A stretch of 64,000 nt of DNA, taken from NCBI GenBank assembly GCA_021414085.1, contig JAIOPC010000014.1, positions 744,001 to 808,000 of the forward strand. The letters run 5' to 3'. Each line of letters begins with the position of its first letter. Position 1 is the stretch's first letter. The notes beneath the pieces are model-generated. The model was not told where the DNA came from and ran no database searches. It saw only the letters and a program-made list of their open reading frames with translations. Of the stretch, positions 3,540 through 41,399 are shown piece after piece. Source of the stretch: Actinomycetes bacterium (GTDB lineage: Bacteria > Actinomycetota > Acidimicrobiia > Acidimicrobiales > Ilumatobacteraceae). Position numbers and translations under genes: made by a program.

Positions 3540-5861
3540 TCATTCCGCGCGCAGCACGGCGCCGGGGCGCGATCGTAAAGTGAGTGCACTTGTGATGGCG
3601 GCGACAACGACCATCGCGATTGCGGTTGCCCCAGCGACGCTCCAGACCGTGGTCGGCACGATGGTGTCGGCAAGCGCACCGACATCGTTCGCCAACTTGT
3701 GGTGAATCGCACGTGCAACGACGAAACCGATGAAACCGCCGATTGCACCGCCAACCAAAGTCGTGATCGCGTTCTGCCACAAGTGCGCACCGACGACTTG
3801 CGATGTCGTGAAGCCCAGCGCGCGATGTATAGCGATCTCGCGGCGAGCGCGGTTGATCGTCACAACGACGGCATTGAGCAGAGCAAAGAAGCCCAGCAGC
3901 AGCAGCAGTTGCGCAACGGAGCTCGGCAAACCGCCGAGCTCGCCGACATTGCCAACCTCCGATGGTGGAGCGACGGGGCTGATGAACAACCCGGGGTGTC
4001 GAGCGTTGACAGCAGCGGGGTCGGCTCCGGTGACGTAACGAACTGCGGTGCTGTCGACTGCGGGGTTGGTCAGTGCCTGGAGACCGTCGAGCGTCACGAT
4101 GAATCCATTGCCGGTGCTGTCGACGCCAGCCGTCAGCACTTCGCCAACGATCGTGAGCTGCACGGACCCCATAAGTCCTTCGATCGTCACTGACTCGCCG
4201 ATATCAACCCCGATTGCCTTCATCGCAACGCGTCCGAGTGCGACCTCGTCTGGCAGTAACGGTGTGCGGCCGTCAGTCACGACATTCGCGATTGTGCCCT
4301 TCACGCTCTCCAGCGCGCCCGGAACCAGATCCACCGCGCCGTCCGGCCCGCGCACCGACATCGTCGTCTCGTTGTCCGCGGTACCACTTGTCCACAGAGT
4401 GGCCACAGATTCGATGTCTGGGTCAGCAGCCAACTCGGCAGCAACCGTCAGTTCGTCGTTCGAGACCGCCTCGAAGACTTTCGCATCGAAGTCGGCGCCA
4501 TACAGCGAAGGGGTGGCGAGCATGTGGTCAATGGACCCGTCGAACGTCAGCGCACTGACGGCGCCCAAGGTCGCGACGAGGACGCCCAACACCGCGCCCC
4601 GACCAGGACCGGACGCAAGCCGGCCACCGAGGGAGACCACCGGGCCACCTCGGCTGGCGGTGCGGCGGAGCACGTCGGCGCGTCGGCGCACCACGATTGA
4701 ACAGGTGCCGGCAATGACCAGCGCGGTTGCGAGCACGACCAGGACGCCCCACCCGCCGATCGACCAATACCAATGCAAGCCCGGCTCGGGTTCGGCTCGG
4801 CGCGTAATCCCAACTGGGTCGAATGGGGACATTGCATACGCGATTCCGCCAGCACCCAACGCGCCGAGGACGACGGCTGGGACCATGATCGCGAATCGCC
4901 CGATTCGTGTCTCGCGCGGCGTCATCCCCAACGCGCGATGGCTGACGTCGACCAAGGTCAAAGATCGAACGAAACGCGCGCACGCGAGCAGCAATATCAA
5001 TGCGCCGGCGAACGCTGCGGTCAACGCCATCAGAATCCATGTCTTGACCTGCAACGAGACCGTATCGGCGAGGCGTCCCCCCAGATTCTCGGTCGGCGCG
5101 ACGATCGCAGCCGGATAGATCAAGGCCAGCTGTGCCGACACCTCAGCGATCGCGTCCGGGTGCGCGAGGACTTGCACGATGCAGCGACACGACCAGATTT
5201 GGTCGTCGTACTTTTCGTAGAAGGCCCGCGAGAAGAGCAGGAATGGATCTGGAGAGTCGCTGATCTCTTCGGGCGTGCGACCAACTCCAACGACGCGGAC
5301 ATCGATGTTCGGCCCTTCGGGCTCGCCCAACTCCACATCATCATTGATCGAAGCGAGGAATTGCTCGCTCGTTGCCGACTGCAACTGCAGATGGGTTCCT
5401 GGGTGCGCGTTCAGGAGATCGCGCATTGCTTCGTTGAGGAAAACCTCGTCGGCGCCCATGTCGCTGATGTGGTCAAGCGTGGGTCCCTCAACAAAGAACG
5501 GGCGCGAGGACTGACCGAGTTCCTCGATGTACGCAAACGAGAAGAAGTTCGGATGCTCGGGGGTGGAGACGGCCAGGAACGCAATTTCCGTTGCGCCTTG
5601 CACCCCGTCGATCTGCATTACTTGGTCGAGTAACGCAGGGTCGAGGTCGCCGATAGAAGCGTCGGTCAGCGCACTCACTTGCAGGTTGGGCTGGTTCGTC
5701 GCGACCAGCATCCGGTCGAACGCCGTGTCGGTTCGTCGTGCTGCCGCGACCGCCTCGATGGTTGGGCCGCCGACGATCGCGACAAGGGCCATCAGAAGCA
5801 GCAGTGAACCCCAGCGTCGCCGCCACTCGCTGCGCGCCCACATCATTACCCCGGCATTCAT
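3540..5861 (-). CDS. FtsX-family ABC transporter permease (first of a pair)
   Basis: The 773-residue permease is a paralogue of its downstream neighbour: an N-terminal helix (RRRWGSLLLLMALVAIVGG region), a long periplasmic-type domain, a central helix bundle and a C-terminal FtsX domain with RARREIAIHRALGF between helices. The start at 5861 has an AAAGG site just upstream; a second Met at 5846 is possible. It is co-transcribed with the gene ending at 1118. The upstream divergent region contains a palindrome and direct repeats (5912-5950) that may control it. The absence of a nucleotide-binding subunit nearby is unusual for a MacB-type system. Confidence 0.85.
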   Translation of the reverse strand: MNAGVMMWARSEWRRRWGSLLLLMALVAIVGGPTIEAVAAARRTDTAFDRMLVATNQPNLQVSALTDASIGDLDPALLDQVMQIDGVQGATEIAFLAVSTPEHPNFFSFAYIEELGQSSRPFFVEGPTLDHISDMGADEVFLNEAMRDLLNAHPGTHLQLQSATSEQFLASINDDVELGEPEGPNIDVRVVGVGRTPEEISDSPDPFLLFSRAFYEKYDDQIWSCRCIVQVLAHPDAIAEVSAQLALIYPAAIVAPTENLGGRLADTVSLQVKTWILMALTAAFAGALILLLACARFVRSLTLVDVSHRALGMTPRETRIGRFAIMVPAVVLGALGAGGIAYAMSPFDPVGITRRAEPEPGLHWYWSIGGWGVLVVLATALVIAGTCSIVVRRRADVLRRTASRGGPVVSLGGRLASGPGRGAVLGVLVATLGAVSALTFDGSIDHMLATPSLYGADFDAKVFEAVSNDELTVAAELAADPDIESVATLWTSGTADNETTMSVRGPDGAVDLVPGALESVKGTIANVVTDGRTPLLPDEVALGRVAMKAIGVDIGESVTIEGLMGSVQLTIVGEVLTAGVDSTGNGFIVTLDGLQALTNPAVDSTAVRYVTGADPAAVNARHPGLFISPVAPPSEVGNVGELGGLPSSVAQLLLLLGFFALLNAVVVTINRARREIAIHRALGFTTSQVVGAHLWQNAITTLVGGAIGGFIGFVVARAIHHKLANDVGALADTIVPTTVWSVAGATAIAMVVVAAITSALTLRSRPGAVLRAE

Positions 5862-33087: not shown

Positions 33088-33156
33088 CGATTGGCCGGTA
33101 CCCCCTTGGGCCACGTGCTCAATTGGGTTGGGGATATCACTTTTTCCGACTACTCG

Positions 33157-33186
33157 TTGACAATGCGTAGTAACTTGCGAGATCGT
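33157..33186 (+). promoter_or_regulatory. Possible promoter of the RHS gene
   Basis: A consensus -35 TTGACA at 33157-33162 is followed after 18 bp by GATCGT (33181-33186), a weak -10. The ribosome site GGAGG at 33211-33215 lies 5 nt before the GTG. The rest of the 133-bp gap after rng holds a weak hairpin (TGGCC at 33092 with GGCCA at 33109). Confidence 0.35.
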
Positions 33187-33220
33187 TGGAGGCATTCGGT
33201 CGACTAGGTCGGAGGCCTTT

Positions 33221-36200
33221 GTGAAGCGATTCCGTCGTGTTGTCTCGTTGCTGATTGTTTCTGCGCTGGTGTTTGAAACCTCGGGGGGAGTAGCGACGGC
33301 TGAGCCAGCCTCTTCGTCGCCTGCGGTCGCTGGCCCGGTTGAGGTGCCACCGCTTGGTGTGTCGGGTACGCCGGTCGGTGAGGTGGCGAAGTCGGAGGAG
33401 TTGCCGAAGGATGTGTTGACCGAACCGCCGACTGATGCGGTGCCGGTGAAGGAGTCGTGGGCGACCAGGCTGAAGCGTGAGCAGGCCGCGGCGGCGAAGC
33501 CATCGGTGGTCGGTTTTGATGAGGCATTGTCGGTGGAGGATGAGTCTGCTCGGTCTGCCTACGGGACGACCTTTACCAACGCTGATGGCACGCAGACCAC
33601 TGTGATCGATGATCACTTGGTCCACTATCTGGTTGACGGTAAGTGGCAGCCGATCGATCCGCGGGTGGTGCAGTCGGGCGATGGTGTGTGGGTGACGAAG
33701 GCGAATGATCGGGTGGCGACGTTTTCGTCGAAGGCGATTGAGTTGGCTTCGCCGCGGGGCGCTGTTCGATGGGTGCCTGAGGGTGTGTCGTTGCCTGAGC
33801 CAGAGGTATCGAAGGACGGGTTGACCGTCACGTATCGGCAGGTGTGGCCCGGTGTCGATTTGGTGTATCGGTTGGAGACCGACATGGTCAAGGAGGAGAT
33901 CGTGATCTCTGACTTGGCATCGGTGCCCGCTGACGGCTCGTTTGCGTTTGAGGTATCAGGTCCGGGGTTGCAAGTCGATAGCAAGGATGCTCTTTCGTTT
34001 GAGGGCGAGCTCGGGACTGATTTGTTCTTCGGTGCTGTGGAGGTGTTGAACGCGGGTCGTCTGCCGATTTCGACGCCAGAGGTGGTTTCAGTTGAGGTGG
34101 CGGACCGTCGCATCAGTGGTAGTTCGAAAGTTGACTCGTTGCGCGTGGGGATTGATCCTGAGTGGGCGGCGGGTTTGCCAGCCACCGCGTTTCCGTTGAT
34201 TGTTGATCCAACTACCGGGTGGGGTAGTTGGATCCAGAATGCGGAGGCGAGCAACTACGCGTTCTGTGGGACCAACCCGTTTTGCAACAAGGCACGCGTC
34301 GGCAACTTCTACTGGTCGGGTGTGAACAGCTACTGGCACACCGGCCTCGGCTTCGATTACTCGGCGTATCTTCCGACGTCCACGGTGGCTTCGCAGCTGC
34401 AAGCGGCGTCGTTGCATATGTCGTTCTCGTGGGGTGACGGTTCGGCGCAGCCGATCGCGGTGCGCCACGCGACGTCGTATTCGTATTGCGGCACGAATTA
34501 CAACAATGATTGCAATCAGGGTACGACGCCGTATTTGCCGTTGCAATGGATGTCGACGGGCGCGGTGTACTACGACGTGATGTCATTCGTCAATCCGTAT
34601 TGGTATGCGGGTGCATCAACGATTGGGTTTGCGGTGTCGTCGAGCGAGAATCCTGGCCAGTTCACTTACAAGGAACTGAACACTGCCTTGTACTTGACCT
34701 ACAACCGGCTTCCGATCCCGCAACAGGCGAACATGTCCCCGGGGAACCCGTACACGTTTCATTCGTCGGCGTCGGGCATCAGCCTCTCGATCAATCAGCT
34801 CACTGATCCTGATGGTGAGGCGTTGTACTACCGATACCTATTGTGCACCGCGGTTGGTTGCCCGGGGGGATCTACGATTGCCGATGACTCGGGCTGGGAT
34901 TCGGTGGGTGTGCCAGATTCGACTCCCTGGACGTACACCTCGGCTCTGTATCCGCCGGGGCCAGGGTTGACTGCCTGGTTTTACAATCGGCAATTGTATT
35001 GGCAGGTGATGGTGTCCAACTCGTCGACGGGCGCCGGGTTCATCGCGTATTCGCCGTGGAACGCGTGGAGGCTGGTTAACAATTGTCCGGCGCCACCAGC
35101 GATGTCAGATCCAGCAACGGGCTCGGGTGGTTTCACGTGGGCACCGAATAATCCGCCGACATTGACGATCACGCCCTACGCGGATCCCGACGGCGACGGC
35201 GCGCGATACAGGTTCGTCATTCGCGAGAAGGGGAGTAATGGGCTGACCTATACCTCGGACTGGACTGCGATGTCATTGTCGGTGGCACCGATCAGTTTCA
35301 CCGTTCCGGCGGATGCCTCGCTGCAGCCCGGCGTGTCGTATGAGTGGTCGGCAGAAGCGCGCGATTCGACGACGGAGTTTCATTGGTACTACTACAAGGG
35401 TGCGCCGTGTTCGGCGGCGTCGTCGTTCCGGGCGGCGGAGTTCGAAGCGCGTCTCGGTACGGGTGGCCCGTCACCGACACAATCGCTCGGCCCCGTTGCG
35501 GTGAACTTGGCAACCGGCAACGTGACCACTGCGATCACAACCCCGCAAGTTGCGACACTGGGCGGCACGATGGGTGCGTCGCTGGCGTACAACTCGCGAG
35601 CAAATGACATCGGGCTCAGAGCGCGGCTGTATAACGACGCAAACGGGAATGGCGTTCTCGACGTTGGCGAACCCTTGGTGACGTCGCGAGTGGATCGTGA
35701 GATGTCGTTCACTTGGGCGACCCCTGGTGCCGCTCCCGGCATCACTAACTTCGTCGGCACGTGGACCGGCTATCTGACCGTGCCAACCGCGGGGACCTAC
35801 CATATAGCGGGTGCGGTCGGTGCCGACGAACGCGTGGAAGTCAAAGTCGGTACGGGTTACACGATGCAAGCCAACTACGTGAACCCGGCGGCGATCGGGC
35901 TCGATGACGTTCCGAGCCTCAGCCCGGGCTCCTACAACGCAAGGCCAAACGTCTCGGCCACTGCCGGCGGATTCACCACAACCTCCGCGTTCCAGACGTT
36001 GCCGATAACCGTCACCTACCGCAACCCAACCGGGGCTGGCTACCTGGCGTTGTATTTGTCAACGAACAGCGGCTACTACACGGACCTGCCAACCACTTGG
36101 TTGTCACCCGACGTGCGCGTCGTGCCGCGCGGCTGGACGTTCAATCACCTCGGCGGTGCCGGGGCTTCGTATACGTCGGCCCGTGTGGAAGCAACCGAGA

Positions 36201-39200
36201 TTGTGCTGACTCGTTCCGACGGATCAACCGTGTCGTACGCGCGTAACGCGACCGGTGGCTACACACCGCCACCCGACAAGAACGACATCGTCTCGTTCGC
36301 TGGCGGCAAGGTGACTGTGATCGACGAAGGCGGTTCAGTGCATCAGTTCAACGCTGACGGACTGCTTGACACTGTGACCGCGCCAGCAGACACCAAGACT
36401 CCAGCGGCACCGACACCGGTATGGACCAGTGTCACTCTGCCCGGTTCAACGGTTGCCACCACGCGCATGACTGCGCTCGCCGACCCGATTTCTACCCGTC
36501 AGGTGACCTTCAAGTATCAAGACGTCAGCAGCTTCAACTGTGACACCGCTGGCGGGTTTGCTGCAGTGCCCTCCGGGATGCTGTGCCAGATCAACTATCC
36601 CGACGGGTCATCCACGAAGCTGTTCTACATCAGCGACGGGCAAGGTTCGGTGCAACTGGCGCGTGTCCAAAACCCTGGCGATGCGACACTCGGCTATCCG
36701 ACACTCGATTTCGGCTACTCGCAAGTCTCGATGCCCGCACCGTCGGGAGGCACGTACACCGTGCCGCTGCTCTCCAGCGTGCGCGACCCGCTCGTCAACG
36801 ACGCAATCGCAGCCGGGCTGATCAGTGCGTCAACTGACTACGTGACAGCGATCGCCTACGACTCCAACGGCCGCGTGCTGTCAGTGACTGCGCCGAAGCC
36901 CTCAGCATCGGCGACGTTCCGCCAGCAAGTGTTCGTTGACTATCAGACCGTCGGTGGAGTGACGTTCAACGAAACCCGACTACGCGTCCTCGGTTTGGAT
37001 GACATCGTTTCGACGACCGACTGGGACCGAAAAGTGCTCTTCGACTCCACGGCTCGAACCACTTCGGACTATCAGGCGTTGAACGCGACGTCGACTCAGT
37101 TTGTGCTCTCCGAGTACGGCTGGGACGGCAACAGCACCGCCGACCGTTTGCTGTGGACGAAATCTGCCAATCAGATCACGAGCTACGTGTACTCGCCGGA
37201 AGGATGGCGGACGGACACCTTTGGGCCAGCCAACGCGAACTGTTTCAACACGGTCGGCCTTACCAAGGTCGTCAACGGGTCATGCACCAACCCGGCAGTT
37301 CCGCACACTTCAAGCGTCTACGACGGCGGCCTCAGTGGGCTGTCAGTGACGGTGTGGCCGAACAACACCTTTAGCGGTCCACCATCGAACATGACCACAG
37401 GGCTCGCCGGCTCGAGTTCGTTGTCTTATGGATGGCTGCTCAGTGGCCCTGCAGAAGCAACGAACGCGGTGGGCACCCAGCTGACTGACAACTTTTCGTT
37501 GCGCTTCACGGGTTCGATCGTGTTCCCGAGTACCGGCACCTACACGTTCAGCACGACTGGTGCGGATGATGTGTTGAACGTGTACATCGATGACCAGCTC
37601 GTCTTCGCCGCTACCTGCTGTGGTGCGACCTCCGGGACGTTCTATCTGCCCGCGGGATCGTCGCTGACCAGACGAATCCGTCTCGACTACGTCGAGTACA
37701 CCGGTGGCGCGTCGTTCAACCTACGCTGGAACGGCACCGGCACCGGCGGCACAGTCGCCGTTCCCATCAGCGCGCTGAAACCGCGCTACGGGCTCGTCAC
37801 CAGCACGACCGTCGAGGACTCCGGCGGCGTGACGCCGTCGTCGACCTCAACCATCTCCTATTCAGCGACCGGTCTCGACCCGGTGTATGGACTCCCTACG
37901 AATGTCACATCCGGTGGATTGACGACAACTACGGCCTACGAGACTGGCGGCTACCGGCGGCGCACCTCGCGTACCCTGCCAGCTGGAAATCAGACCAGCT
38001 ACGAGTACTACGCGAACGCGGCGACGGCCGACAATCCGTGCACGATCGCGGCTGACCCGGTCAACCAAGGCGGGCTGTTGCGATACACGATCGACCCGCT
38101 CGCGCAGACCGGCAAACAGATCATGTCCGAACAGATCTACGACATGCTGTCGCGCCCGGTCGCTTCCCGACGTGGTACTCGCACTTCGGGCGTCGATACC
38201 TGGGAGTCGACCTGGACATGCATCACGTACGACGCTCGTAATCGGCCAACCACCGTGACGATCCCGAACAACGCTGGCACGGCAGTCGAGCGCACCGTAA
38301 CGACCAACTACGCAGTCGGTGGAGACCCTCGCAAATCGTCCGTCACCGATCCTGCTGGCACGATCACCGCCGAGTCGGACCTGCTCGGCCGCGGCGTCAG
38401 CTACACCGACGTGTGGGGCACGGTGACGACCTCAAGCTACGACGCGACCGGTGAACCCGGCCGACTAGGCCAGACGACCGTCACGACTTGGACTGGTGGT
38501 AGCAACCTGCTGGCCGCGACTCACGCGTGGGATTACGACCGCGCCGGGCGACTGACACGTCAGTACCTCGATGGAGAGACGATCGCGATCCCGACCTACA
38601 ACACGCCGGGCTCCGCGAATGAGCACACGTTGGCGAGCGTGTCGTATCCGTCGGGCGTGGGCAACGCCGGTAACGGCACGTCGCTAGCCGCGATCACCCG
38701 TGACACCAATGGCGCGGTGACCTCGACGACGTGGAATCAGGGTGCCGGCGCGTTCTTCACGAACACCGTGACGCGTTCGCAGACCGGGCGTGTGGTCACC
38801 GATTCGGTGAACGGGCAGAGCACATCGTCGTTTGAGTACGACACCGCTGGCAGGTTGAAGAAGGCGACGCAACCCGGGCATGTACTCGAGTACCAGTTCG
38901 GCACAACCGCCTGCGGAGGAACCAACCCGCTCAACAACGCCGGGTCCAACAGCAACCGCACCGCGTTGATCGACAACACCGTCACGATCGCGACCTATTG
39001 CTACGACAACGCAGACCGACTGATCTCGACCACTGCGGCCGGTTACGGTGGCGGTATCACCTACGACGATCATGGCAACACCACCACCCTGGCTGGTGAA
39101 ACCCTCGCCTATGACGGTGCCGATCGGCACATGTCGACCACTGCGAACGGTGTCACAGTCAGCTACACCCGTGATGCGACTGATCGGATTGTTGCTCGCA

Positions 39201-40738
39201 CGATCCCGGCGCCGGGAGCGACTCCCGTGTTCCGCGACGCAGGCACAACGGCTGATAACGGCAGCGGATCAACCAGCCTGGCGTTGGATCGTCCAGTGAC
39301 CGCAGCGGCGGGGGATGTGTTGCTGGCGACGGTGGCGACGGTCGGCGCAACGGTGACCGCACCGTCGGGGTGGACGGCTGTCGCGTCGGCATCGAACACC
39401 GATGTCGCGACGACAGTGTTTTGGCGGTTGGCGACCGGTGGAGACCCGTCGTCGTGGACGTTCGCGCTCTCCGCGTCGCAGAAAGCTGCCGGCCAGATCG
39501 TCGCCTACAGCGGTGTACACGCAACATTCCCGGTCGACGTCATCGCAACCGCCGCGACAGCATCCGGAACAACGCATACGGCACCGCAGGTAACGTCGAC
39601 TGAGGACAACCGCCTCCTGCTCACCGTGGCAGCGACAGCGATCGACACGACATGGACACCATCAGCCGGCGCAACCGAACGCACCGACGCCGCTGCTGTG
39701 ACTGGCGCACCGACGGTGTCGGTCGAGGTCGCCGAGCACGAGCAAACCGTTGCAGGGCTCTCGACCGTCCAGTCACCAACGTCAGCAGCCGCGGCTGTCG
39801 GCGCGACAATGACGATCGCGCTGCGGCCAGCGAACTCGACGATCGCGACCAAAACGTTGCGCTACTCGTATTCAGGCGGTGCCGACGCCACTGCGCTCAC
39901 AATGACGAATGCGAACGTGCTGCTGGATCGCACGATCACGCTTCCGGGTGGTGCGGTGTGCAGTGGACTGACCGCCGCGACGGCGGTGTGGGCGTACCCG
40001 AACATCCACGGCGATGTCACCTACACCATCAACCCGGCCGGCACGCCGAGCGGGCCGTACCTGTACGACCCGTACGGGCAGGTGTTGACCGGCAACACGA
40101 ACACGAGTCCCGGTGATTTCGATAACGGCTGGCTCGGCCAACACCAACGCCCCACCGAACAGCAACCCGAACTCAAACAAACCATCCAAATGGGAGCGCG
40201 GCCCTACCGCCCAGACCTCGGCCGCTTCCTACGAATCGACCCCATCGACGGCGGAGCCACCTCCAGCGACTATGGATACGTCGTCGACCCCATCAATGTG
40301 TTCGACTTAACTGGGGAGCGGTGTTCCGGCCGGGAAGGCAGCAAGGGTAGCTGCGGGGTCGACTTCAACGGCTCCAGCAAATTGACTAAGCACGGGTCGG
40401 TCAAAGGCCTCACGAACGAGATTCCGGGCTTTTTCGACACCGTTGGGCAGGTGGCCCACCCGGCAACCCATTGGATTAAGGACCATGCATGGCAGATTGC
40501 TACGGCGGCTACTGGCTACGCATGCATCGTGGGCGCATTTACGGCTGGTGCAATCTGCCTTGTCGTAACAACGGCACTCCTTATCGCCAAGACTGCGGCG
40601 ACCTCATCGGCTGGAGGCAGCGGAGGGGACCACGCTTGGAACGTGGTCACGACATTCATCTTTATGGCGCCCGGGGGCGAATGGGTGACCTTGCTGTGTA
40701 GCTTGTCAAGCAAGTGTTCGAATCCGGGTCTCCCGTGA
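33221..40738 (+). CDS. Giant secreted RHS-repeat protein with C-terminal toxin-like tip
   Basis: The 2505-residue protein begins with a signal peptide (about residues 1-28, basic start then LLIVSALVF). Visible modules are an N-terminal region to about 330, a DNRLRE-like beta domain (about 333-494), fibronectin-like repeats (about 505-735) and a first PA14-like domain (about 800-970). A second PA14-like domain (about 1370-1520) and YD/RHS repeats (about 1530-2000) follow. An inserted beta-rich module (about 2000-2205) precedes the RHS core ending PDLGRFLRIDPI ... NVFDLTGE (about 2277-2366). The last 139 residues (40319-40735) differ in style, carry two hydrophobic segments and several Cys, and look like a polymorphic toxin tip. 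A rare Leu TTA codon sits at the junction (40307). It is inserted between rng and rplU. Confidence 0.88.
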   Translation: MKRFRRVVSLLIVSALVFETSGGVATAEPASSSPAVAGPVEVPPLGVSGTPVGEVAKSEELPKDVLTEPPTDAVPVKESWATRLKREQAAAAKPSVVGFDEALSVEDESARSAYGTTFTNADGTQTTVIDDHLVHYLVDGKWQPIDPRVVQSGDGVWVTKANDRVATFSSKAIELASPRGAVRWVPEGVSLPEPEVSKDGLTVTYRQVWPGVDLVYRLETDMVKEEIVISDLASVPADGSFAFEVSGPGLQVDSKDALSFEGELGTDLFFGAVEVLNAGRLPISTPEVVSVEVADRRISGSSKVDSLRVGIDPEWAAGLPATAFPLIVDPTTGWGSWIQNAEASNYAFCGTNPFCNKARVGNFYWSGVNSYWHTGLGFDYSAYLPTSTVASQLQAASLHMSFSWGDGSAQPIAVRHATSYSYCGTNYNNDCNQGTTPYLPLQWMSTGAVYYDVMSFVNPYWYAGASTIGFAVSSSENPGQFTYKELNTALYLTYNRLPIPQQANMSPGNPYTFHSSASGISLSINQLTDPDGEALYYRYLLCTAVGCPGGSTIADDSGWDSVGVPDSTPWTYTSALYPPGPGLTAWFYNRQLYWQVMVSNSSTGAGFIAYSPWNAWRLVNNCPAPPAMSDPATGSGGFTWAPNNPPTLTITPYADPDGDGARYRFVIREKGSNGLTYTSDWTAMSLSVAPISFTVPADASLQPGVSYEWSAEARDSTTEFHWYYYKGAPCSAASSFRAAEFEARLGTGGPSPTQSLGPVAVNLATGNVTTAITTPQVATLGGTMGASLAYNSRANDIGLRARLYNDANGNGVLDVGEPLVTSRVDREMSFTWATPGAAPGITNFVGTWTGYLTVPTAGTYHIAGAVGADERVEVKVGTGYTMQANYVNPAAIGLDDVPSLSPGSYNARPNVSATAGGFTTTSAFQTLPITVTYRNPTGAGYLALYLSTNSGYYTDLPTTWLSPDVRVVPRGWTFNHLGGAGASYTSARVEATEIVLTRSDGSTVSYARNATGGYTPPPDKNDIVSFAGGKVTVIDEGGSVHQFNADGLLDTVTAPADTKTPAAPTPVWTSVTLPGSTVATTRMTALADPISTRQVTFKYQDVSSFNCDTAGGFAAVPSGMLCQINYPDGSSTKLFYISDGQGSVQLARVQNPGDATLGYPTLDFGYSQVSMPAPSGGTYTVPLLSSVRDPLVNDAIAAGLISASTDYVTAIAYDSNGRVLSVTAPKPSASATFRQQVFVDYQTVGGVTFNETRLRVLGLDDIVSTTDWDRKVLFDSTARTTSDYQALNATSTQFVLSEYGWDGNSTADRLLWTKSANQITSYVYSPEGWRTDTFGPANANCFNTVGLTKVVNGSCTNPAVPHTSSVYDGGLSGLSVTVWPNNTFSGPPSNMTTGLAGSSSLSYGWLLSGPAEATNAVGTQLTDNFSLRFTGSIVFPSTGTYTFSTTGADDVLNVYIDDQLVFAATCCGATSGTFYLPAGSSLTRRIRLDYVEYTGGASFNLRWNGTGTGGTVAVPISALKPRYGLVTSTTVEDSGGVTPSSTSTISYSATGLDPVYGLPTNVTSGGLTTTTAYETGGYRRRTSRTLPAGNQTSYEYYANAATADNPCTIAADPVNQGGLLRYTIDPLAQTGKQIMSEQIYDMLSRPVASRRGTRTSGVDTWESTWTCITYDARNRPTTVTIPNNAGTAVERTVTTNYAVGGDPRKSSVTDPAGTITAESDLLGRGVSYTDVWGTVTTSSYDATGEPGRLGQTTVTTWTGGSNLLAATHAWDYDRAGRLTRQYLDGETIAIPTYNTPGSANEHTLASVSYPSGVGNAGNGTSLAAITRDTNGAVTSTTWNQGAGAFFTNTVTRSQTGRVVTDSVNGQSTSSFEYDTAGRLKKATQPGHVLEYQFGTTACGGTNPLNNAGSNSNRTALIDNTVTIATYCYDNADRLISTTAAGYGGGITYDDHGNTTTLAGETLAYDGADRHMSTTANGVTVSYTRDATDRIVARTIPAPGATPVFRDAGTTADNGSGSTSLALDRPVTAAAGDVLLATVATVGATVTAPSGWTAVASASNTDVATTVFWRLATGGDPSSWTFALSASQKAAGQIVAYSGVHATFPVDVIATAATASGTTHTAPQVTSTEDNRLLLTVAATAIDTTWTPSAGATERTDAAAVTGAPTVSVEVAEHEQTVAGLSTVQSPTSAAAAVGATMTIALRPANSTIATKTLRYSYSGGADATALTMTNANVLLDRTITLPGGAVCSGLTAATAVWAYPNIHGDVTYTINPAGTPSGPYLYDPYGQVLTGNTNTSPGDFDNGWLGQHQRPTEQQPELKQTIQMGARPYRPDLGRFLRIDPIDGGATSSDYGYVVDPINVFDLTGERCSGREGSKGSCGVDFNGSSKLTKHGSVKGLTNEIPGFFDTVGQVAHPATHWIKDHAWQIATAATGYACIVGAFTAGAICLVVTTALLIAKTAATSSAGGSGGDHAWNVVTTFIFMAPGGEWVTLLCSLSSKCSNPGLP

Positions 40739-41193
40739 GCAGCAACGAGCTGTACCTCAGAGGTTCTTCGTCTCAGCGATGGGTGATGGTCACGTTTTCG
40801 GTGATCGCCATGTTGGCCATGTACGGCTTCCTGTGGTGGTCGCTGAGTGCATCTAAGCCGGTTGCGGCAGCTGTTTTGGTTTCGATGTTCGGCGCTGCGC
40901 TTTTCACGGAGCTTGTACGACGCGCATGGCGTGCCGGGGCAATCGCGACTGTGCACGGTCTGCAACTTCGCGGACTACTGCGAACGCGACGATTCGGGTG
41001 GAATGAGATATCGAGTTTCGAAATCTGGGATTGGTTTGGCTCGCCGGCCCTCTGGGTCGAGTTGAACGACGATCGCAAGCGTCGGGTCTTTCCATTCTTC
41101 GGCCAGACCGGCCGATATCAGCGAGAGGTTCCCGACTACCTGAAGAATTTGCGCGATGAGTTGCTTCAGTTTCGGGCGCAGATAGGACCATGA
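40735..41193 (+). CDS. Small PH-like membrane protein, putative immunity protein
   Basis: The GTG at 40735 overlaps the RHS stop (GTGA), so the 152-residue protein is translated with the toxin-tip gene. It has two membrane helices (about residues 17-38 and 43-60) and then a cytosolic bacterial PH-like fold (VHGLQLRGLLRTRRFGWNEI, SFEIWDW, LWVELNDDRKRRVFPF). A GTG at 40714 would add 7 residues. Position and coupling are those of an immunity gene behind an RHS toxin; the membrane location fits a tip that has hydrophobic segments. The role is inferred from context; the fold call is by eye. Confidence 0.65.
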   Translation: MSSNELYLRGSSSQRWVMVTFSVIAMLAMYGFLWWSLSASKPVAAAVLVSMFGAALFTELVRRAWRAGAIATVHGLQLRGLLRTRRFGWNEISSFEIWDWFGSPALWVELNDDRKRRVFPFFGQTGRYQREVPDYLKNLRDELLQFRAQIGP

Positions 41194-41399
41194 CTCATCC
41201 TTCGGCCTCGGCGGCGACCCGTGGCTCCTCCGTGATGAATCCGGCACGCGTACTCGGACCAGCACGGCGAGTTGCCCGTTGCGCGTCCGTCCAAACACAC
41301 GGACGTCTCCGTTGTGAGTTTACGAAAATCGCTGGTACCCAACTCGAAGACGGTTTGGCTGGCGTAATCCGGCGGGGCAGCCGCTAGGATCGCAGGGCT
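41194..41399 (+). other. Intergenic region before rplU
   Basis: This 206-bp stretch separates the RHS module from the ribosomal protein genes. I see only the rplU -10 box at its right end. A 65-codon open frame starting at 41190 has an Arg/Ala-rich, non-protein-like composition and is not called. Confidence 0.5.
41385..41390 (+). promoter_or_regulatory. -10 box for rplU-rpmA
   Basis: TAGGAT ends 9 nt before the ATG at 41400, consistent with a leaderless or near-leaderless transcript. Confidence 0.45.

What the first reader, a model, noticed from the sequence alone, without database searches (positions are those of the whole stretch)
40307..41193. Candidate new membrane-acting RHS tip with a PH-like immunity partner
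After the RHS core ending FDLTGE, 139 residues with two hydrophobic stretches and five Cys form a separate tip; I recognise no known toxin family in it. The junction is marked by a rare TTA codon. The next gene begins inside the tip stop (GTGA) and encodes a two-helix membrane protein with a PH-like domain, as expected for immunity to a membrane-active effector.
Basis: partly seen in the sequence, partly recalled or inferred. Interest (0 to 1): 0.6.

Follow-up and report, generated by a model that had tools for sequence, protein, structure and literature searches.

The report
RHS antibacterial toxin tip with guard
A huge secreted RHS protein of an uncultured actinobacterium ends in an exchangeable, unclassified 139-residue tip that probably damages the membranes of rival bacteria, and the overlapping next gene probably makes the membrane-anchored protein that protects the producer.

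Summary
The anatomy described is real, with corrections: six cysteines, not five, and one strong hydrophobic stretch (31 uncharged residues) plus a weak one. The gene is a 2505-residue RHS polymorphic-toxin protein with an export-type N-terminus, two PA14 stretches and a significant Rhs-associated core. That core, 45-57% identical in related actinobacteria, is followed by a different tip almost every time: 122 tips in 83 clusters. Some carry known toxin domains (phospholipase A2, Ntox17, Ntox21). The window's tip and partner matched nothing above cutoff in Pfam, NCBIfam, PHROGs, PADLOC, plasmids or several hundred genomes. The core's catalytic aspartate pair is invariant, so the tip is probably cut off at E|R (base 40319). 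The partner is modelled as two membrane helices, six strands and a C-terminal helix; structural matches are PH/PTB/FERM-type at moderate confidence. Weak bPH_6 signals occur in two more partners of this core. The pair sits in an 8.3-kb insert between rne and rplU, which adjoin in 11 of 14 congeners. Best reading: a Tse5/Tsi5-like membrane-active tip with a membrane immunity protein. Membrane action, toxicity and neutralisation are inferred; tip and partner hydrophobicity were not significantly associated across the census. New member of a known kind.

The parts
33221..40738 (+). RHS polymorphic-toxin protein, 2505 aa, export-type N-terminus (KRFRRVVSLLIVSALVF...ATA), two PA14 stretches, RHS core, variable tip
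   Evidence: PA14 2.9e-15; Rhs_assc_core TIGR03696 1.9e-9, 37.9 bits, above cutoff 32.5; signal sequence by inspection only
39929..40318 (+). C-terminal core/plug region shared with relatives (45-57% identity), ends FDLTGE
40238..40240 (+). First predicted catalytic Asp of the self-cleaving aspartyl protease (counterpart of Tse5 D1141)
   Evidence: Invariant in 19 aligned cores; motif from PMC10684867
40304..40306 (+). Second predicted catalytic Asp (counterpart of Tse5 D1164); cleavage expected four residues on, between E (40316-40318) and R (40319-40321)
   Evidence: Invariant in 19 aligned cores; Tse5 is cut between L1168 and I1169
40307..40309 (+). Only TTA codon of the RHS gene, at the core/tip junction
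40319..40738 (+). Variable tip, 139 aa plus stop, six Cys, no relative found; predicted membrane-active toxin
40496..40588 (+). 31-residue uncharged hydrophobic stretch IATAATGYACIVGAFTAGAICLVVTTALLIA with two Cys
40643..40699 (+). Weak second hydrophobic stretch around tip residues 108-126
   Evidence: Kyte-Doolittle maximum 1.45, below the usual 1.6
40735..41193 (+). Partner gene, 152 aa, GTG start inside the tip stop (GTGA); candidate immunity protein. An in-frame upstream GTG at 40714 would give 159 aa
   Evidence: no close relative
40762..40932 (+). Two-helix membrane hairpin of the partner (model helices 10-40 and 43-66)
   Evidence: AF2 model; Kyte-Doolittle; Arg after helix 2 suggests N-in/C-in
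40936..41184 (+). PH-like domain of the partner: six strands (68-117) and C-terminal helix (131-150)
   Evidence: AF2 pLDDT 68, pTM 0.54; VIA Z up to 8.7 to PH/PTB/FERM folds; bPH_6 E 0.014, below cutoff
33088..41399 (+). 8.3-kb stretch between rne and rplU that holds the RHS gene and partner; rne and rplU lie 49-80 bp apart in 11 of 14 congeneric genomes

Best explanation
An exported RHS polymorphic toxin whose variable C-terminal tip is a small membrane-active, probably pore-forming or depolarising, antibacterial domain, with an immunity protein encoded by the overlapping next gene. Proposed steps: (1) the protein is exported through Sec and held at the cell surface (inferred from the N-terminus and PA14 domains); (2) the RHS shell encloses the tip and its plug aspartates cut after ...DLTGE (inferred from the invariant Asp pair and Tse5 structures); (3) on contact the freed tip inserts its 31-residue hydrophobic stretch into a rival's membrane and collapses ion gradients (inferred); (4) the partner, a two-helix hairpin with a probably cytoplasmic PH-like domain, sits in the producer's own membrane and blocks insertion or assembly of its cognate tip (inferred). 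Shown by data: modular tip swapping, toxin domains on sibling tips, overlapping partner gene, insertion of the unit into a housekeeping gene row, hydrophobicity of both proteins.
For: Rhs core above the curated cutoff. Same core with 122 distinct tips in 83 clusters, the window's tip unlike all. Sibling tips carry Phospholip_A2_3 (8e-10), Ntox21 (3e-7), Ntox17 (5e-6) and PT-HINT. Tip length 138 lies at the lower quartile of the census (138-166), so it does not look truncated. Partner start overlaps the tip stop; 67 of 109 sibling partners do too, 21 by exactly four bases. Asp pair invariant, matching the self-cleaving dyad of Tse5. Hydrophobic stretch beyond shuffles. Two-helix plus PH-like model; weak bPH_6 in two other partners of this core. 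Empty site in 11 of 14 congeners. Precedent: Tse5-CT, a 149-residue Rhs tip, forms pores and is neutralised by two-helix Tsi5.
Against: No sequence or structural relative of the tip, and its AF2 model is meaningless (pLDDT 38). No glycine zipper. One strong hydrophobic segment could be a translocation element or a buried core instead. Hydrophobic tips are not significantly enriched for membrane partners (21/39 v 14/38, p = 0.17; stricter subsets p = 0.14 and 1.0). Partners with at least two membrane segments (35 of 77) are only somewhat above local background ORFs (7 of 26). Tip-partner co-inheritance cannot be tested with a single instance.
Confidence: 0.55

Rival explanations
1. The tip is a toxin but not a pore: an unrecognised enzyme or inhibitor acting at the cell surface (for example on lipids or cell-wall precursors), with the hydrophobic stretch serving entry or anchoring. 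The partner is immunity at the membrane.
For: Sibling tips of the same core include a phospholipase A2; the PLA2-like tip L128 has a neighbour with three hydrophobic segments, so membrane partners may also guard enzymatic tips. Many sibling tips with hydrophobic stretches carry extra non-hydrophobic sequence.
Against: No family hit in the 139 residues; too few related sequences to look for a catalytic motif.
Confidence: 0.25
2. The tip is a membrane anchor or translocation segment that fixes the RHS protein in the producer's envelope, and is not a toxin. The partner is an assembly factor or unrelated.
For: One long hydrophobic stretch, the most that is shown directly; PA14 domains suit a surface adhesin.
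Against: An anchor should be conserved among relatives with the same core, whereas the tips are unrelated and several are known toxin domains. No sorting signal seen by inspection.
Confidence: 0.1
3. A degenerate or non-functional leftover tip with a chance downstream ORF.
For: Tip and partner have lower codon-usage scores than the rest of the RHS gene (0.55 and 0.45 against a mean of 0.61 for RHS windows); no relatives.
Against: Intact frame, typical tip length, coding-type third-position GC (0.69 and 0.66), four-base overlap, coherent two-helix plus domain partner model.
Confidence: 0.08

Closest known systems
Tse5/Tsi5 of Pseudomonas aeruginosa (Rhs pore-forming effector and two-helix immunity; PMC9637101, PMC10684867)
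   Same: Rhs shell with C-terminal Asp pair (22 residues apart here, 23 in Tse5), released small C-terminal part (139 v 149 aa) with hydrophobic segments, two-helix membrane partner
   Different: No detectable sequence similarity in the tip, Sec-type rather than T6SS/PAAR delivery, PA14 domains, partner carries an added PH-like domain, actinobacterial
WapA/Sec-exported RHS polymorphic toxins (Zhang et al. 2012, PMC3482391)
   Same: Export signal, long RHS protein, exchangeable C-terminal domain, adjacent immunity gene
   Different: Tip and partner belong to none of the families scanned; a two-helix plus PH-like immunity was not found in the passages of that survey I searched (it names Imm-CdiI and Imm17 as two-helix families)
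Glycine-zipper and ionophore toxins with membrane immunity (EsxX PMC12744356; CDI ionophores PMC11630599)
   Same: Small hydrophobic C-terminal toxin domains; neutralisation often by membrane proteins
   Different: No glycine zipper and no five-helix bundle shown here; different delivery; no sequence relation found
Tox-WTIP (two-helix predicted pore-forming tip; PMC3482391)
   Same: Small hydrophobic polymorphic-toxin tip predicted to insert in membranes
   Different: RxxR and W-[ST]IP motifs are not apparent here by eye; described as limited to proteobacteria

Membership tests
RHS polymorphic toxin | Rhs-associated core domain | tested here: met
   TIGR03696 1.9e-9, 37.9 bits v cutoff 32.5, residues 2282-2365
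RHS polymorphic toxin | Conserved core followed by exchangeable, unrelated C-terminal domains | tested here: met
   122 tips, 83 clusters, same core
RHS polymorphic toxin | Known toxin domains on tips of the same core | tested here: met
   PLA2, Ntox17, Ntox21, PT-HINT
RHS polymorphic toxin | Self-cleavage Asp pair (DPxG-x18/19-DPxG type) | tested here: met
   D and D 22 residues apart, invariant in 19 cores; the second DPxG reads DLTG here; cleavage itself not shown
RHS polymorphic toxin | N-terminal export signal | tested here: inconclusive
   Typical Sec-type n/h/c regions by inspection; no predictor run
RHS polymorphic toxin | Toxic tip neutralised by the adjacent gene product | not testable with these tools
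   Needs expression experiments; gene order and overlap fit
Tse5-type pore-forming Rhs tip | Sequence relation to Tse5-CT | tested here: not met
   No match of the tip among PDB chain sequences up to E 5
Tse5-type pore-forming Rhs tip | T6SS PAAR-like N-terminus | tested here: not met
   No PAAR hit in Pfam or NCBIfam scans
Tse5-type pore-forming Rhs tip | Hydrophobic membrane-inserting segments | tested here: inconclusive
   One strong and one weak segment; insertion not tested
Tse5-type pore-forming Rhs tip | Ion conductance or depolarisation | not testable with these tools
   Needs bilayer or flow-cytometry assay
Glycine-zipper toxins (EsxX/TelE type) | Glycine zipper GxxxGxxx[GST] or [GAS]xxxGxxxG | tested here: not met
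   No match in the tip
bPH_6 bacterial PH domain (partner) | Pfam gathering score 22 bits | tested here: not met
   15.8 bits, E 0.014
PH-like fold (partner) | Strand sheets capped by a C-terminal helix | tested here: inconclusive
   Six strands and C-terminal helix in a pLDDT 68 model; most top VIA rows are PH/PTB/FERM, best Z 8.7; Foldseek best E only 0.1

The most novel reading that the evidence does not exclude
Actinobacteria deploy a class of Sec-exported RHS proteins with small membrane-active tips, guarded by a recurring immunity design not described in the literature searched: a two-helix membrane hairpin that carries a cytoplasmic PH-like domain. The window's pair would be one member, with a toxin family of its own.
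Probability: 0.3. Interest if true: 0.55.

Novelty: new member of a known kind. Interest (0 to 1): 0.38.

Why it matters
Most tips behind this core match no Pfam family, so actinobacterial RHS proteins are a large unread store of antibacterial domains. Tse5 shows that an Rhs tip can form pores; a Sec-exported actinobacterial case would extend this beyond T6SS delivery. If the partner neutralises the tip, a PH-like domain fused to a membrane hairpin would be a new immunity layout and give a searchable handle on other membrane-acting tips.

Tried and rejected
Family libraries for tip and partner: nothing above cutoffs. Direct relatives of the tip in genome contigs, 61 relatives, 395 class genomes, 396 phylum genomes, plasmids and viral contigs: none convincing; the hits near E 1e-3 that were read out (L002-L004, L006, L007) lay in implausible frames or an unrelated membrane protein; the E 8e-4 hit in G072 was not examined. 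Partner: none. AF2 of the tip without relatives: pLDDT 38, discarded. Test that hydrophobic tips go with membrane partners: not significant. Search for older cassette remnants between partner and rplU: nothing convincing; the one low E-value came from a 210-base database. TTA codon as a regulatory or boundary mark: noted, not used. Glycine zipper: absent. An early regex scan for tips missed several loci and was replaced by tblastn. Paper searches for PH-domain immunity proteins listed none that I recognised as such, which does not prove there are none.

Full report
Observation. The RHS reading frame runs from 33221 to 40738 on the + strand (2505 residues), and the next frame starts at the GTG that shares bases with its TGA stop (GTGA, 40735-40738) and ends at 41193. 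After FDLTGE there are 139 residues. They contain six cysteines, not five. A 31-residue stretch without charged or strongly polar residues lies at tip residues 59-89; its 19-residue Kyte-Doolittle maximum of 2.24 is reached by 14 of 2000 shuffles of the same tip. A second stretch near residue 108 reaches only 1.45. The TTA at 40307 is the only TTA of the gene.

Identity of the carrier. NCBIfam places the Rhs-associated core at residues 2282-2365 above its cutoff, and Pfam finds two PA14 stretches. The N-terminus looks like a Sec signal by inspection. The last 131 residues before the tip are 45-57% identical in the closer actinobacterial relatives: 10 of 61 relatives and 23 of 395 class genomes match at the thresholds used, and 76 loci in genome contigs, among them Microthrixaceae and other Acidimicrobiales MAGs, Cellulomonas, Curtobacterium, Nocardia and Streptomyces. 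Contig lengths tie one congener to the groundwater MAG contig JACQZZ010000037 and one genome of the same order to Actinobacteria bacterium IMCC26207, so the host is probably an uncultured acidimicrobial-type actinobacterium (inference).

Tip swapping. Reading on from the core in these loci gave 122 distinct tips in 83 clusters, median 154 residues; the window's tip resembles none. Pfam recognises toxin-type domains on a few: prokaryotic phospholipase A2, Ntox21, Ntox17, Ntox37 and a pretoxin HINT domain. Some loci hold several cores in a row, each with its own tip (IMCC26207). This is the mark of a polymorphic toxin system and is the strongest evidence that the window's tip is a toxin.

Release. 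The core alignment keeps two aspartates in all 19 sequences (window 40238-40240 and 40304-40306). They match in spacing (22 against 23) the catalytic pair of Tse5, which is cut four residues after the second Asp (PMC10684867). The cut is therefore expected between E (40316-40318) and R (40319-40321), freeing the 139 residues. This is inference by analogy.

Partner. Pfam gives only a sub-threshold bPH_6 match (E 0.014), just after the second hydrophobic segment. Two other partners of this core show the same weak match (L056 E 0.0097, L082 E 0.062). An AF2 model from a three-row alignment has two long helices, six strands and a C-terminal helix, pLDDT 68, pTM 0.54. Foldseek finds no significant match (best E 0.1), but most of the best VIA alignments are PH, PTB or FERM-F3 domains, Z up to 8.7, a level the tool warns may reflect only a common arrangement. 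Arginines after helix 2 suggest that both ends face the cytoplasm.

Mobility. rne and rplU lie 49-80 bases apart in 11 of 14 congeneric genomes; in the window they are separated by 8312 bases holding the RHS gene and partner. Two of the other three have inserts of roughly 670-810 bases there; the third shows about 970 bases upstream of rplU without rne. Codon usage of tip and partner scores lower than the rest of the gene (0.55 and 0.45 against 0.61).

Mechanism. The closest worked example is Tse5: a 149-residue Rhs tip that enters membranes, forms ion-conducting pores and is neutralised by the two-helix protein Tsi5 (PMC9637101). The anatomy here fits that pattern. The direct test available, whether tips with a membrane-like segment tend to have membrane partners, did not reach significance (21/39 against 14/38, p = 0.17; stricter subsets p = 0.14 and 1.0). 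A sibling tip with phospholipase A2-like sequence also has a multi-helix partner. The partner's membrane helices therefore show where immunity probably acts, not that the tip is a pore.

Novelty. Unclassified tips are the rule behind this core, so one more is a new member of a known kind. The less ordinary point is a two-helix plus PH-like partner that may recur. The 2012 survey of polymorphic toxins names two two-helix immunity families and, in the text searched, mentions a PH-like fold only for EsaC; searches for PH-domain immunity proteins listed none that I recognised. Three sub-threshold hits and one moderate model are not enough to call it a family.

Noticed in passing
L049, L064 and L099 (G415:C5 and G335:C3): Rows of two or three core copies, each followed by a different tip and its own downstream ORF: arrays of spare tips in acidimicrobial genomes.
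   Followed up: partly
L128:3615-4067 (+) and its partner 4067-4426: A tip with phospholipase A2-like motifs, probably the one behind Pfam's Phospholip_A2_3 match, whose overlapping partner has three hydrophobic segments: a membrane-acting enzyme with a membrane partner.
   Followed up: partly
L010, L018, L027, L069, L080 and L132 tips: Several tips share a Gly-rich pattern with closely spaced Cys (such as GCALICAGVSWQHG), often with small two-helix partners: a possible second tip family.
   Followed up: no
L144, L151 and L157 (upstream of rplU): Other, unrelated sequence lies between rne and rplU in two congeners and possibly a third, so this junction may be a favoured insertion site.
   Followed up: partly
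41191-41399: About 210 bases between the partner and rplU hold short open stretches in all forward frames but no gene that could be identified.
   Followed up: partly
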